Assembly (NCBI RefSeq): GCF_008000815.1
Contig: NZ_CP042806.1
Span: 3,844,001-3,908,000 of the forward strand
Length of the DNA: 64,000 nt
Direction of reading: 5' to 3'
DNA from: Terriglobus albidus
Lineage (GTDB): Bacteria; Acidobacteriota; Terriglobia; Terriglobales; Acidobacteriaceae
A model generated the notes under the pieces. That model did not search any database. It was not told where the DNA came from and saw only the letters and a program-made list of their open reading frames with translations. The position numbers and the translations under genes were made by a program. Positions 35,481 through 61,096 of this stretch are shown piece after piece. Position 1 is the stretch's first letter, and every line of letters starts with the position of its first letter.

Positions 35481-35945
35481 ATGTTTCGCATCGGTGTTCT
35501 CTCCGACACACATGACCTTCTGCGTCCCGAGGTTCTACCCGCCTTGTCAGGCATGAAACATATTCTTCACGCAGGTGATATCGGTTCTCCGCAGATTCTG
35601 GATAATCTGCGTTCTATCGCTCCCGTCACGGCGATTCGGGGTAACACCGACACTCACGGCCCATGTGCATTGTTACCTGCCACAGAGATGATTGAGCTGG
35701 CCGGGCGTTTCTTCTATCTAGTGCATGACATCGCTCAGCTCGACATCAACCCTTCGGCGGCGGGCGTGGACTGTGTCATTTTCGGACACTCCCATAAACC
35801 GTCATTTGAAGAGCGGCATGGCGTTTTTTACCTCAACCCTGGCTCCTGCGGACCACGCCGTTTCAATCTTCCGATCACGCTCGCTCTGCTGGAGATCGAT
35901 GCGGACCGGATCACGCATCGGCTCGTAGACCTCACGCACACCTAA
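35481..35945 (+). CDS. YfcE-type metallophosphoesterase
   Basis: This is a 154-residue calcineurin-like phosphodiesterase with the compact MJ0936/YfcE fold. Metal ligands are visible in GVLSDTHD, HAGDIGS, RGNTDTHG, LVHDIAQ and FGHSHKP, with NPGSCGPRRF at the end. Members hydrolyse phosphodiesters in vitro and their physiological substrate is unclear. It begins three bases after dppC, so the two are cotranscribed. The stop codon TAA contains the TA that flanks the inserted MITE at 35945; before that insertion its stop overlapped that of the convergent dppB. Confidence 0.9.
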   Translation: MFRIGVLSDTHDLLRPEVLPALSGMKHILHAGDIGSPQILDNLRSIAPVTAIRGNTDTHGPCALLPATEMIELAGRFFYLVHDIAQLDINPSAAGVDCVIFGHSHKPSFEERHGVFYLNPGSCGPRRFNLPITLALLEIDADRITHRLVDLTHT

Positions 35946-36056
35946 CGCATTTTCCCTGTTGCTGGGTATTCCGGAAGGGGCGTGCAGCGGCGTTTTCATT
36001 GCGGAAAACGCCCATAGATGCGGAAGCCCTACATTACGTCGACAGGGAAAATGCTC
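35945..36056 (+). mobile_element. MITE copy 1 (112 bp, TA-flanked) between convergent genes
   Basis: The ends are ACGCATTTTCCCTGT and ACAGGGAAAATGCTC, nearly perfect ~14-bp inverted repeats, with TA directly outside each (35943-35944 and 36057-36058). An inner hairpin GGCGTTTTC/GAAAACGCC sits in the middle. No transposase is encoded. The left TA belongs to the phosphoesterase stop TAA and the right TA to the dppB stop TAG. Removing the element and one TA gives ACACCTAAGCGG, where both stops share the same TA. Confidence 0.88.
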
Positions 36057-36988
36057 TAAGCGGAACGCATCCGCGGATTCACCAAACGATAGGTAAGGTC
36101 GGTGAGGAGATTGACCGCGACATACGTCACTCCAATCGCAAGAATGCACCCCTGAACCAACGGATAATCTCGGTTGGAGATTGCCGAGATCGTCAACCGT
36201 CCCAATCCCGGCCAACTGAAGATCGTCTCCGTAACGATGGCGCCTGCGAGCAGCGAACCGAACTGCAGGCCAACCACTGTCAGCACAGGTACCAGAGCAT
36301 TGCGAAAGGCATGCCAGACCACCGTCTGCTCGGGAAGGCCCTTGGCTCGATCCGTACGCAGATAGTCCTTACCAAGCTCTTCGAGCACTGAGGTACGAAC
36401 CATACGCGTCAGTGTCGCGGCCAGGCCACTCCCCAGCGTGATCGCGGGCAACACCAGGTGCGTTATCAACTGCCAACCTGTCCCTGCTCCCGACACAGGA
36501 AGCCATCCAAGCCAGATCGCGAAGACAAGGATCAGAACCGGTCCCAGGGCAAAGTTCGGTAGAGAGAGCCCGAACAGACTGGCAACACCAATCGTGCGAT
36601 CCACCCTCGTCCCATTGCGATATGCCGACCAGATTCCCGCAGGCACGGAAAACAGAATGCCGATGAACATCGCCGCAGCAGTGAGCTCCAGGGTGTAGGG
36701 ATAGCGTTGGCCAATCAGGGCCATCACCCCCTCGCGCAGGCGTACGCTGCGCCCGAGATCACCATGCGACACGCCCTTCAAAAACTGCCAGTATTGCGTT
36801 TGTAGCGGAAGGTCGAAGCCGTACGCATGCCGCAAGGTTGAGATGTCAGCGGCCGTTGCACCTTCACCGAGCATCTGCACAATCGGATCGCCGGGCACCA
36901 GGCGAATCAGCAGAAACACCACCGTCACAATCAGCCAGAGCACCGGCAGCGTTATCAGCAGCCGCTTAACGATATTGCCAGCCTTCAC
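36056..36988 (-). CDS. ABC transporter permease, DppB/OppB family
   Basis: This second permease of a peptide/nickel-type ABC importer has 310 residues. Six helices are predicted; typical motifs are RLLITLPVLWLIVTVVFLLIRLVPGDP (partly quoted), YGFDLPLQTQYWQFLKGVSHGDLGRSVR-type segment, and the EAA loop DYLRTDRAKGLPEQTVVWHAFRNAL. The GTG start at 36988 overlaps the stop of the upstream CNNM/CorC gene (GTGA). Its own stop TAG includes bases supplied by the MITE end. The DppB and DppC genes normally sit side by side; here they are on opposite strands. Confidence 0.94.
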   Translation of the reverse strand: MKAGNIVKRLLITLPVLWLIVTVVFLLIRLVPGDPIVQMLGEGATAADISTLRHAYGFDLPLQTQYWQFLKGVSHGDLGRSVRLREGVMALIGQRYPYTLELTAAAMFIGILFSVPAGIWSAYRNGTRVDRTIGVASLFGLSLPNFALGPVLILVFAIWLGWLPVSGAGTGWQLITHLVLPAITLGSGLAATLTRMVRTSVLEELGKDYLRTDRAKGLPEQTVVWHAFRNALVPVLTVVGLQFGSLLAGAIVTETIFSWPGLGRLTISAISNRDYPLVQGCILAIGVTYVAVNLLTDLTYRLVNPRMRSA

Positions 36989-39087: not shown

Positions 39088-40167
39088 ATGGCGTTCGTTC
39101 GACTGGAGCATTTTTTCTGTAGGTGTAGTGCAGGGCTTGTTCATCTATGGGCGTTTTCCTCAATGAAAACACCGCTACACGCTCCTCTCGGGATACCCAG
39201 CAACAGGAAAAATGCTCTAGCCATTGCCCTGCTTCTGTTTGCTACCTCCTGTTTAGCTCAATCCTCTGAAGGTCCTTGGCTCTTCGTCGGCTTCAAAAAC
39301 AACGGCCAGAACGGCGTCTACTACGCCGTCAGCGAAGACGGCTGGCATTGGAAGCTGATCAATGACGGCAGGCCTGTAATTGCTCCGGCGCAGGCAGGTG
39401 AATTGATGCGCGATCCCTTCCTACAGCGCGCTCCGAACGGCGGCTTCCGCATGGTGTGGACCTGGGCCTGGCGACAACCGGCAGTGGCTGGATACTCCGA
39501 GTCAAAGGACCTGCTGCATTGGACTCCCCACCGTCAGCTTGAAGTTATGGCTAATGAGCCAACGGCACTGAATGTCTGGGCTCCGGCACTTTATTGGGAT
39601 GAAGCAAAACGCCACTGGCTGATCTTTTGGTCCAGCACCATTCCCGGCCGCTTCCCCCAATCGCAGTATGACAAGAACGGCCTGAACCACCGCATCTACG
39701 CCACCACAACCCGCGACTTTCGAACGTTCGCCCCAGCGACACTCTTCTTCGATCCCGGCTATAACGCGATCGACGCTACGTTGCTGCCCTCGGATGGAAA
39801 CAAGGCAAATGGAAGCTACCGCCTGGTCTTCAAAGACGAACGTAAGGAGCCTGAAGGAAAGCACATCCGAATGGCCAGCGGAGCCTCGATGGAAGGGCCC
39901 TGGAACGACATAACGCAAGCTTTCACCGAACCCGGATCGGAGGGTCCGGCGGGCTTTACGATCGACCACGGATGGGCCGTCTACTATGACCACTACCAGT
40001 CGCCGGGCCAGCACTACGGCTCAACCTTCTCGCGCGACCTGGAGCACTGGCGTGATGGAAAAGACATGACGGAGTTCCCCGCCGGTTTGCGTCACGGATC
40101 GTTTCTGAAGATTACGCGGAAGGAACTGGCTCGGCTTCAGGCTTATCACGATGGAGGTGTGCAATGA
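39088..40167 (+). CDS. Secreted GH43-like five-bladed propeller protein, signal peptide interrupted in frame by MITE
   Basis: This protein is 359 residues from ATG 39088. Residues from ~60 on resemble glycoside hydrolase family 43/DUF-type beta-propellers: YYAVSEDGWHWKLI, LMRDPFLQRAPNGGFRMVW, NVWAPALYWDEAKRHWLIFW, YNAIDATLL, EGPAGFTIDHGWAVYYDHY and PAGLRHGSFLKI, where the Asp/Glu residues are candidate catalytic groups. Residues 6-43 are encoded by the 112-bp element at 39106-39217 plus flanking TA. Without it the N-terminus would read MAFVRLAIALLLFATSCLA, a normal signal peptide. Translation may instead begin at the ATG 39163 inside the element, giving MKTPLHAPLGIPSNRKNA before the hydrophobic core. 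The stop overlaps the MBL hydrolase gene (ATGA). Confidence 0.78.
   Translation: MAFVRLEHFFCRCSAGLVHLWAFSSMKTPLHAPLGIPSNRKNALAIALLLFATSCLAQSSEGPWLFVGFKNNGQNGVYYAVSEDGWHWKLINDGRPVIAPAQAGELMRDPFLQRAPNGGFRMVWTWAWRQPAVAGYSESKDLLHWTPHRQLEVMANEPTALNVWAPALYWDEAKRHWLIFWSSTIPGRFPQSQYDKNGLNHRIYATTTRDFRTFAPATLFFDPGYNAIDATLLPSDGNKANGSYRLVFKDERKEPEGKHIRMASGASMEGPWNDITQAFTEPGSEGPAGFTIDHGWAVYYDHYQSPGQHYGSTFSRDLEHWRDGKDMTEFPAGLRHGSFLKITRKELARLQAYHDGGVQ
39106..39217 (-). mobile_element. MITE copy 2 (112 bp) within a signal-peptide coding region
   Basis: It has the same element as at 35945 in reverse orientation. The ends are GAGCATTTTTTCTGT and ACAGGAAAAATGCTC. The right flank is TA (39218-39219) and the left is TG (39104-39105), presumably a mutated TA. 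The inner hairpin region reads GGCGTTTTCCTCAATGAAAACACC. The element plus one TA is 114 bp, a multiple of three, and no stop occurs in the frame of the host gene. Confidence 0.88.
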
Positions 40168-56483: not shown

Positions 56484-56564
56484 TCAAGATTCATCAATTC
56501 CTCTCGAAGCCGGCCACAAGCCGGCTTCATTCTCTTTTAACCGGCATCCATGACGCTATGCTGT

Positions 56565-57611
56565 ATGCGAGTCCGTCTAAAGCATTTTTCCTGTTGCTGG
56601 GTATCCCGGAAGGGTTGTGCAGCGGCGTTTTCATTGCGGAAAACGCTCACAGATGCGGAATCCCTACGCTACACCTACAGGAAAAATGCTCTTAGCCTTC
56701 TTCTGTTGATCGCGACACTGCCGGTGTCATCAGAGACCATCCTCGTCCACGCCCACCGTGGCGGCCGGGCTGCTCGTCCTGAAAACACGCTGCCCGCGTT
56801 TCAATACGCCATCGATACAGGCGCCGATGCGCTCGAGCTCGACCTGGCAGTCACGAAAGATAACGTCCTGGTCGTCTCGCATTCTCCATACCTGGTGCAG
56901 CCTGAAGGTACGGATGCCTTTATGAAGGCAGTCCTCGCCAACGAGCGCGTCTGCAGTGGACCTGCGCTTCCTCCGGGCACGCTGATCCACTCACTGACAC
57001 TGGCGGAAATCAGGCAGTACGACTGCGGCGCAAAGACACTGGCAGCCTTCCCCCAACAAAGAGCCGTGCCTAACACGCACATTCCGACCTTCGAGGAGGT
57101 TCTGGATCTAGCGCCAAAGGGAACCTTCGATTTCAATGTCGAGACCAAGATCTCTCCGGCACGTCCGGAGCTCACACCTTCACCTGAGGTCTTCGCGAAG
57201 ATGATCGATGAGGCTGTGCGCAAGCATCAACTGCAATCGCGCGTCATCCTGCAGAGCTTCGATTTCCGGACGCTACACGCGATGAAGAAGATTGATCCGC
57301 AGATTCGCCTCTCCGCTCTCTTCGGTCAGGCAAAGTACGACGGCTTCATGGGGATTACCGACAAAGACAAAAGCTTTGCGCATATTGCTGCTGTCTCTGG
57401 CGCGAACATTCTGAGCCCAGACGAAAGCCTCGCTACCACGGATGAGGTCGCCGCGGCTCACAAGGCAGGCTTGCAGGTGATTCCTTATACGGCAAATACC
57501 ATCGAAGGCTGGAAGATACTCAGCGAGGCCCATGTGGATGGAATCATCACGGATGATCCAGCAGGTCTGCTGCAGTGGCTTCGTTCGCAGAAGCCGGCAT
57601 TACATCGCTAG
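56565..57611 (+). CDS. Secreted glycerophosphodiester phosphodiesterase, signal peptide interrupted in frame by MITE
   Basis: This enzyme of 348 residues from ATG 56565 belongs to the GDPD TIM-barrel family, which hydrolyses glycerophosphodiesters to glycerol-3-phosphate and an alcohol. The catalytic signature HAHRGGRAARPENTLPAFQYAID (partly quoted, ~60-85) has His and the metal-binding Glu; ELDLAVTKDNVLVVSHSP follows with metal-binding Asp/His. The C-terminus reads WKILSEAHVDGIITDDPAGLL. Residues 5-42 derive from the MITE at 56580-56692 (114 bp net). Without it the start would read MRVRLSLLLLIATLPVSS. A TTG at 56634 inside the element could also start translation. Confidence 0.85.
   Translation: MRVRLKHFSCCWVSRKGCAAAFSLRKTLTDAESLRYTYRKNALSLLLLIATLPVSSETILVHAHRGGRAARPENTLPAFQYAIDTGADALELDLAVTKDNVLVVSHSPYLVQPEGTDAFMKAVLANERVCSGPALPPGTLIHSLTLAEIRQYDCGAKTLAAFPQQRAVPNTHIPTFEEVLDLAPKGTFDFNVETKISPARPELTPSPEVFAKMIDEAVRKHQLQSRVILQSFDFRTLHAMKKIDPQIRLSALFGQAKYDGFMGITDKDKSFAHIAAVSGANILSPDESLATTDEVAAAHKAGLQVIPYTANTIEGWKILSEAHVDGIITDDPAGLLQWLRSQKPALHR
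56580..56692 (+). mobile_element. MITE copy 3 within a signal-peptide coding region
   Basis: The left end AAGCATTTTTCCTGT and right end ACAGGAAAAATGCTC match the other copies. TA flanks both sides (56578-56579 and 56693-56694) with one extra T at the right. The inner hairpin is GGCGTTTTC/GAAAACGCT. Orientation is opposite to copy 2. The element again lies a few codons after the ATG of a secreted protein, and the net insertion is 114 bp. Confidence 0.88.
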
Positions 57612-60482: not shown

Positions 60483-60536
60483 AACCTCACACAAAGACGA
60501 TGCGGGTAAATGTAACCCACATCCGGTAAGTAGCTA

Positions 60537-60647
60537 GAGCGTTTTCCCTGGTGCTGGGTATCCCGAAGGAGGCGTACAGCGGCGTTTTCATTGCGGAAAC
60601 GCCCATAGATGAGGACGCCCTACATGACACCCAAAGGGAAAATGCTC
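60537..60647 (+). mobile_element. MITE copy 4 within the hopanoid operon
   Basis: The left end GAGCGTTTTCCCTGG and right end AAAGGGAAAATGCTC are flanked by TA (60535-60536 and 60648-60649). The inner hairpin is GGCGTTTTCATTGCGGAAACGCC. Length is 111 bp, one base shorter than copies 1 and 2. The right TA is part of the stop TAG of the minus-strand gene at 60647, as in copy 1; a single TA left after excision would preserve that stop. It separates that gene from hpnA. Confidence 0.85.
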
Positions 60648-61096
60648 TAGTCCAGCTTCTCCGCTTCAATTCCAATATTCGTTTCGCCCGCGGCCTTTTT
60701 TTCCCAGTACTTCTTGACCCAGGCTTCGAAGGACTTGCCGGCGGCAGCGTCGCGGCCGGTAAATGCGAGAGCTGCGATATCGCCGTAAGCCACGTTGACC
60801 TTTGCGCGGTCTCCCTTGGCCGGAATGATGCGGATAAAGGAGTCACGCAGCGATGTACCGGAGCGGCGGTCGAAGATATACCCCTCGAGGATGACGCCGT
60901 CCTTCTTCGTGATCGTCACATCTCCGCGATAGTCGAAGGCCTTTTCCAGCGATTCCCGCACTTCTTCGTCGGAGGCAAGAGCCGGAATCCAGCCCTCGAG
61001 ATTCTCCCGCTCACGACCGGCGACAACCTCGAGCTCATCAGCCGAATGCTCTTTCAACTGATCGATCTTTCCCGCTTCCTGCTGCACTGTCGACAT
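60647..61096 (-). CDS. Conserved protein of unknown function in hopanoid operon
   Basis: This is a 149-residue protein from ATG 61096 (MSTVQQEAGK); five bases separate it from hpnH, so cotranslation is likely. The N-terminal third is acidic and helical (GKIDQLKEHSADELEVVAG). The middle (SLEKAFDYRGDVTITKKDG) and C-terminal halves (YGDIAALAFTGRDAAAGKS then FEAWVKKYWEKKAAGE) are the recognisable part, with the look of a small beta-barrel (LSm/PRC-like) followed by a helix. I recognise the GRDAAAGKSFEAWVKKY pattern as recurring beside squalene/hopanoid genes, but no function is known. The stop TAG includes the MITE flank. Confidence 0.75.
   Translation of the reverse strand: MSTVQQEAGKIDQLKEHSADELEVVAGRERENLEGWIPALASDEEVRESLEKAFDYRGDVTITKKDGVILEGYIFDRRSGTSLRDSFIRIIPAKGDRAKVNVAYGDIAALAFTGRDAAAGKSFEAWVKKYWEKKAAGETNIGIEAEKLD

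What the first reader, a model, noticed from the sequence alone, without database searches (positions are those of the whole stretch)
56565..56760. A second independent in-frame insertion of the same element in another signal peptide
The phosphodiesterase gene shows the same event with the element in opposite orientation. Excision of 114 bp gives MRVRLSLLLLIATLPVSS. In both genes the insertion lies 4-5 codons after the ATG, following an Arg codon, at C-TA-GCC-like sequence, and both orientations are stop-free. Two matches of length, phase and position argue that such insertions are tolerated or selected, so the element may work as a portable N-terminal extension.
Basis: partly seen in the sequence, partly recalled or inferred. 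Interest (0 to 1): 0.85.

Follow-up and report, generated by a model that had tools for sequence, protein, structure and literature searches.

The report
Jumping DNA tucked into signal peptides
A 112-base mobile DNA element in a soil bacterium sits mostly at gene stop codons and between genes, and in a few genes it adds 38 in-frame amino acids just ahead of the export signal, where the extra piece would usually be cut off again during secretion.

Summary
The GDPD phosphodiesterase gene (ATG 56565, stop 57611) carries a 112-bp MITE-like element plus a TA duplication: net 114 bp, 38 codons; two relatives have the empty site. I examined 136 full-length copies in 2.4 of 6.4 Mb. There is no 5'-end preference: 8 of 136 are N-terminal, about the share of TA sites there. 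Most sit at stop codons (55 of 136, about 20-fold over TA background) or between genes (60). All 8 N-terminal copies are in frame, stop-free and just before a signal peptide or first membrane helix (neutral expectation about 1e-4); a ninth call, out of frame, was moved to the stop class after seeing orthologues. Five of the 8 are shared with one to three related genomes and open in all 12 orthologues seen, with indels of only -3 and +6. So in-frame N-terminal extension is real and filtered by selection; tolerance explains it, a benefit is not shown. In 7 of 8 hosts signal peptidase should remove the insert (inferred). Precedents exist (Rickettsia RPEs, Yersinia RU-2): new variant of a known kind. 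The stop-codon preference exceeds what the target motif predicts and stays open.

The parts
56580..56691 (+). the 112-bp element (GAGC...GCTC; here AAGC...GCTC) in the GDPD gene; with 56692-56693 the net insertion of 114 bp
   Evidence: nhmmer model and alignment; empty sites in L034 and L035
56578..56579 (+). left TA of the target duplication, codon positions 2-3 of a Leu codon
   Evidence: TA rule from 102 copies
56692..56693 (+). right copy of the TA duplication, here TT (one change)
56565..57611 (+). host gene, GDPD-family glycerophosphodiester phosphodiesterase, 348 aa with the insert (an ATG at 56550 is also in frame)
   Evidence: Pfam PF03009 E 2.7e-44
56691..56732 (+). LSLLLLIATLPVSS, hydrophobic core and end of the presumed signal peptide, intact after the insert
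   Evidence: sequence; hydropathy rule; cleavage inferred
39104..39219 (-). TA-to-TA extent of the copy in the N-terminus of the gene at 39088, opposite orientation, net 114 (plus-strand left TA now TG)
   Evidence: also present and open in G008, G012, G015
39088..40167 (+). host gene, 359-aa exported protein (GH43-like by my reading only; no Pfam match)
35943..36058 (+). copy between two convergent genes; the TA ends lie in the stop codons of both (35481-35945 + and 36056-36988 -)
   Evidence: empty in G008
60535..60649 (+). copy at the stop codon of a 149-aa minus-strand gene, net 113; shared with G008

Best explanation
A non-autonomous, TA-targeting MITE family of Terriglobus and close relatives, about 57 full-length copies per Mb. 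The 112-bp element plus a 2-bp duplication adds 114 bp, so an undamaged copy does not shift the frame. When it lands in an NTA codon (Leu, Ile, Val) between the start codon and the hydrophobic core of an export signal it adds 38 residues; its terminal repeat reads R-K-N-A just before the restored codon in either orientation, so positive charge before the core is kept. Signal peptidase would then remove the added peptide together with the signal, leaving the mature protein as it was. These n-regions are therefore among the few places inside genes where the element survives; selection removes frame-shifting, stop-bearing and internal insertions. At stop codons the element's first base (G) turns TAA or TAG into TAG, so such insertions do not change the protein either. 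Shown: anatomy, TA duplication, empty sites, in-frame state, frame kept across species, stops kept. Inferred: translation through the element, export, cleavage, and movement by a transposase that I did not find.
For: Empty sites in L034, L035. TA duplication: element keeps its own first G in 45 of 51 and last C in 43 of 49 informative copies. Net 114 in 50 of 95 copies but in 8 of 8 N-terminal ones. Matched neutral draw gives 0.28-0.31 open per insertion, 4e-5 to 9e-5 for eight. Hosts: all have an N-terminal hydrophobic segment; 39% of genes do, 5e-4 for eight. Shared insertions open in 12 of 12 orthologues, indels -3 and +6 only. Pfam: GDPD, outer-membrane barrel, EamA, TPR, HlyD_D23, Amidase_3, Reg_prop/GGDEF; one without match. 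Stop kept at 59 of 59 gene-element junctions of the stop class. Middle of genes: 1 call of 136, and it reads to a stop at the junction.
Against: Only eight cases, and the in-frame pattern was noticed in the same blocks where it is counted; the two replicate blocks gave one first-31-codon call, out of frame (692648, net 112), which I then moved to the stop class because two orthologues lack the element and the start appears to lie downstream. Gene starts come from a home-made caller; no signal-peptide predictor and no expression data were available. One host (EamA) is a membrane protein whose insert would not be cleaved. No transposase was found. One N-terminal copy (1635353) is flanked by TG, not TA. 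Codons usable as starts inside the element exist, so translation may begin there.
Confidence: 0.7

Rival explanations
1. The element is a useful N-terminal module, positively selected in exported proteins (for example tuning translation or export).
For: All eight hosts are exported or membrane proteins; 4 of 7 N-terminal insertions assessable in G008 are shared with it, against 1 of 8 others (2 of 9 with 692648, which G008 also carries).
Against: No excess at 5' ends over TA content; the difference in sharing is not significant (p 0.12 for 4/7 against 1/8); element pN/pS 0.66 against host 0.20; several insertions are in one lineage only.
Confidence: 0.1
2. Translation starts inside the element (ATG at element codon 20 in the reverse orientation, TTG at codon 19 in the forward one), so the element replaces start codon and n-region rather than extending them.
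For: The ATG is kept in 4 of 4 copies of the 39088 gene and the TTG in 9 of 9 forward copies checked; from there a normal-length signal peptide would follow.
Against: The half of the element before these codons is open too in all eight; in the amidase gene, read in another frame, the translation shows no Met inside the element; the original start and its upstream DNA are still in place.
Confidence: 0.15
3. The host genes are decaying pseudogenes and the open frames are accidental.
For: No expression data; none of the calls supports it directly.
Against: Each of the eight frames has a single stop, at its end; seven have Pfam domains above the cut-off; host pN/pS after the element is 0.20.
Confidence: 0.03

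Closest known systems
Enterobacterial RU-2/YPAL repeat in Yersinia YPO1552 (Delihas 2007, PMC2759123; passages and section 16 read)
   Different: There the repeat is the first 30 residues of a protein whose relatives have unrelated signal sequences, proposed as a new exported protein; here the repeat stands before an existing signal core in eight unrelated proteins, with empty sites and orthologous filled copies
Rickettsia palindromic elements (review PMC10969869, passages read; primary papers not held or not read)
   Same: Palindromic repeats of about 100-150 bp found in frame inside protein genes, shared between species
   Different: RPEs are found in frame inside many proteins (nearly half of the first set); here gene interiors are avoided and fusions are N-terminal before export segments
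Correia/NEMIS and RUP (Delihas review PMC2229807, passages read)
   Same: About 107 bp, terminal inverted repeats, TA ends, target duplication, around 100 or more copies; the 107-bp Correia form is open and found fused to reading frames
   Different: RUP has stops in all six frames; the passages I read mention no signal-peptide or stop-codon preference; sequences not compared here
Coxiella QMITE1/2 (PMC5896051, passages read)
   Same: MITEs altering protein ends in frame, including a C-terminal extension
   Different: No signal-peptide mention in the text (0 occurrences); fusions reported also in the middle of frames

Membership tests
MITE (miniature inverted-repeat transposable element) | short, multicopy, no transposase gene | tested here: met
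   112 bp; 217 pattern matches in the genome, 0 for the reversed control; 136 full-length in 2.4 Mb
MITE (miniature inverted-repeat transposable element) | terminal inverted repeats | tested here: met
   consensus GAGCATTTTTCCTGT...ACAGGAAAAATGCTC; 17 paired terminal positions in the fold
MITE (miniature inverted-repeat transposable element) | target duplication and empty sites | tested here: met
   TA duplication; empty sites
MITE (miniature inverted-repeat transposable element) | an autonomous partner with the same ends | tested here: inconclusive
   2 IS630-type (PF13358) copies lack the repeat; pattern search for the repeat followed by other sequence gave no inward-facing pair; other transposase families not searched
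IS630/Tc1-type TA elements (RUP-like) | TA duplication | tested here: met
IS630/Tc1-type TA elements (RUP-like) | mobilised by an IS630-type transposase | not testable with these tools
   no partner found; needs an assay
Rickettsia-type protein-coding palindromes | in-frame presence throughout proteins, including mature parts | tested here: not met
   8 of 136 copies in frame, all N-terminal; the C-terminal and middle calls read to a stop at the junction or within six codons

The most novel reading that the evidence does not exclude
The element is built to be coding-neutral: net length a multiple of three (116 bp TA to TA also in an 80%-identical relative of another genus), a first base that turns TAA or TAG targets into TAG, a terminal repeat that encodes R-K-N-A before an export core in either orientation, and a real preference, by it or its transposase, for stop codons (4.65% of TAA/TAG stops occupied, about five times more than the target motif predicts), with an orientation bias (38 opposite, 13 same) that hints at a role at transcript ends.
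Probability: 0.22. Interest if true: 0.8.

Novelty: new variant of a known kind. Interest (0 to 1): 0.6.

Why it matters
It is a countable natural example of how a mobile element survives inside genes: by landing in a part of the protein that is thrown away (the signal peptide) or at a codon that it restores (the stop). Natural insertions with empty alleles in sister species make two things testable: how long a signal-peptide n-region may be, and whether stop codons are targeted or merely safe. Preference for stop codons, if it is targeting, would be unusual; my searches of the open-access library for it listed no report of such a preference, which is weak evidence since subscription journals are mostly missing.

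Tried and rejected
Four-base YTAR duplication: rejected, the element keeps its own first G and last C whatever the flank. Truncation of longer genes by the element as the source of the stop-codon class: rejected for the sites seen, since at the 6 empty G008 places of stop-codon copies the TA is there once and, by inspection, reads as a stop on the gene's strand. Target motif as the sole cause of the stop-codon excess: predicts 1.85-fold, observed 9.3-fold. IS630 as parent: its two copies lack the repeat. Rfam at gathering thresholds: only two tRNAs in the window. Plasmid and phage collections: no match. Openness of 3 of 4 frames as a sign of design: 8% of shuffles reach it. A search with the element's two 38-residue peptides (lists capped) gave several long open frames in four genomes, but I could not read their DNA and antisense open frames are common, so I draw nothing from it. 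First hit counts (156 own) held both-strand duplicates of the palindromic element and were replaced by 95. Partial copies were left out (19 stretches in B1-B4 and the G008 stretches; those of B5-B6 not listed). 692648 was moved from N-terminal to stop class after its orthologues were seen; with it the count is 8 of 9. L019 (4094859), outside the blocks, is a ninth in-frame case that splits a signal sequence; it is in no count. Two papers were not held. One search failed on wrong coordinates and was repeated with right ones.

Full report
What is there. Window 56578-56693 holds one copy of a dispersed element. The window is part of a 6.4-Mb single-contig genome (G000). Both are in the same genus as the window's genome. 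No call names the window's own species. The element's left end occurs 217 times with up to 3 mismatches, against 0 for the reversed control. In six 400-kb blocks (2.4 Mb) there are 136 unique full-length copies (95, 41), about 57 per Mb.

Anatomy. Consensus TA + 112 bp + TA, beginning GAGC and ending GCTC, with long inverted repeats and an inner hairpin (consensus RNA fold -56.5 kcal/mol, z -6.8; window copy as DNA z -4.9). The duplication is TA: in 102 copies (own and G008) with TA at both ends the element keeps its first G in 45 of 51 cases where the flank is not G and its last C in 43 of 49 where the flank is not C. The preferred target is roughly CNC-TA-GNG. Net addition is 114 bp in 50 of 95 copies. 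In another genus of the family, relatives of 79-80% identity align over all 116 positions (G156, 5 of 5 scored of 52 candidates). Matches of any kind were found in 5 of 150 family genomes and 5 of 61 relatives, the own genome counted each time.

The GDPD case. Relatives L034 and L035 lack the element and read MRVRLSFLLLIATLPVSS and MRVLLSLLLLIATLPVSS. The window reads MRVRL-KHFSCCWVSRKGCAAAFSLRKTLTDAESLRYTYRKNAL-SLLLLIATLPVSS. The gene at 39088 carries the other orientation, also net 114 and in frame.

Census by context. In a script I removed the elements, called genes with a hexamer model on the element-free sequence, and asked where the TA lay. B1-B4, 95 copies: stop codon 37, intergenic 40, first 31 codons 8, last codons 5, middle 3, start edge 2. 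B5-B6, 41 copies: stop 17, intergenic 20, first 1, last 2, middle 1. Of all TA sites, stop codons hold 2.0% in both sets, intergenic 18% and 21%, first codons 6.2% and 6.0%, middle 69% and 65%. With a 25-codon C-terminal class and 692648 moved: stop 55, intergenic 60, last-25 10, N-terminal 8, start edge 2, middle 1. Of 11 C-terminal or middle gene-copy pairs listed, 8 reach a stop at the junction or one codon on and 3 run about six codons into the element; they look like damaged stop-codon copies. So there is no excess at 5' ends, near absence from gene interiors, and about 20-fold excess at stop codons. In 0.4 Mb of G008, 9 of 30 copies are at stops against 1.6% of TA sites; the rest are 17 intergenic, 2 C-terminal, 1 N-terminal and 1 middle.

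N-terminal copies. All 8 are net 114 and stop-free; the target dinucleotide begins at codon position 2 in 7 and position 3 in 1. Orientation is with the gene in 6 and against it in 2. Hosts: the 359-aa protein without Pfam match, GDPD, an outer-membrane barrel with a carboxypeptidase-regulatory domain, an EamA transporter, a TPR protein, an HlyD-type lipoprotein, Amidase_3 and a Reg_prop-GGDEF sensor. Each has its hydrophobic core after the insertion; by inspection 7 look like cleavable signals (one a lipoprotein) and EamA is a first membrane helix. By a hydropathy rule all 9 first-31-codon calls, 692648 included, have such a segment, against 688 of 1772 genes. Drawing neutral copies of matched divergence, random orientation and the phases of TA sites upstream of such cores, one insertion is open with probability 0.28-0.31 and eight with 4e-5 to 9e-5. 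Identity to consensus is similar in N-terminal (mean 0.904), stop (0.893) and intergenic copies (0.888), so youth alone does not explain it.

Replication. H3, stop-codon excess, replicated (4.21% per TA site against 0.45% intergenic). H4, orientation, had the same sign, 12 to 6, but is not significant alone (p 0.12). H5: one middle call, reading to a stop at the junction. H1 and H2 got a single call, 692648, out of frame (net 112). Two orthologues (G012, G015) lack the element there and G008 carries it; the TA is the stop of the gene before, and a start codon lies downstream, so I moved it to the stop class after the fact. H1 is therefore not independently replicated in the blocks; L019 outside them is one more in-frame case.

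Across species. Orthologue slices: the 39088-gene insertion is in all 4 genomes; lipoprotein 4 of 4; amidase 4 of 4, with net changes of -3 (G012) and +6 (G015); TPR 3 of 4; the 1119-aa protein in own and G015, empty in G008; GDPD and EamA own only, with two empty relatives each; the sensor own only and flanked by TG, while G012 has a separate copy further upstream. All 12 orthologous filled copies are open over the roughly 67-77 codons seen. pN/pS summed over pairs is 0.66 in the element and 0.20 in the host part, pairs not independent. Of 7 N-terminal insertions assessable in G008, 4 are shared; of 8 others, 1 is (p 0.12), or 2 of 9 with 692648.

Stop codons. Of TAA/TAG stops of genes of at least 80 codons, 58 of 1247 (4.65%) carry a copy, against 15 of 1304 non-coding TA sites 1-30 bases downstream and 12 of 3647 at 31-150. 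At 59 of 59 junctions of this class a stop is kept (53 TAG, 6 TAA). A motif learned on intergenic copies predicts 1.85-fold over intergenic TA, observed 9.3-fold. Single-gene stop copies lie opposite to the gene in 38 of 51 (p 0.0006); tandem intergenic copies 20 opposite, 10 same. I cannot separate targeting from survival.

Literature. In-frame MITE fusions are known: review PMC10969869, PMC2229807 and PMC5896051 (passages of each), PMC2759123 (passages and section 16). [quoted passage not shown] Searches for signal-peptide MITEs, Rickettsia elements, stop-codon preference and Terriglobus repeats (listings) showed no report of this family or of a stop-codon preference in what was listed.

Verdict. 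The interpretation needs turning: not a preference for 5' ends but a filter, in which export-signal n-regions and stop codons are the genic places where this element appears to do no harm.

Noticed in passing
L058-L137 and L176-L215 (2.4 Mb of the own genome): Copies are about 20-fold over-represented at TAA/TAG stop codons, always leaving a stop, and lie opposite to the gene in 38 of 51 single-gene cases. Motif explains only 1.85 of 9.3-fold.
   Followed up: partly
L115:13744-14118: A copy of the element is interrupted by another repeat of roughly 240 bp with its own inverted ends (GAGGGTGTGTCATCAAACTC...GAGTTTGATGACACACCCTC).
   Followed up: no
window 35943-36058: One copy lies between two convergent genes and its two TA ends fall in the stop codons of both.
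   Followed up: partly
L122:2443-5469 (minus strand): N-terminal copy of a Reg_prop-GGDEF sensor gene is flanked by TG instead of TA, while G012 has a separate copy further upstream.
   Followed up: partly
L158, L159: Two IS630-type transposase copies, each read as two overlapping open frames, whose flanks lack this element's terminal repeat.
   Followed up: partly
G156 contigs C121, C58, C205, C172, C7: Relatives of the element at 79-80% identity and exactly 116 bp in another genus of the family.
   Followed up: no
L019 (genome 4094859): A further in-frame copy that splits a signal sequence; the element supplies R-K-N-A-L before the remaining hydrophobic stretch.
   Followed up: no
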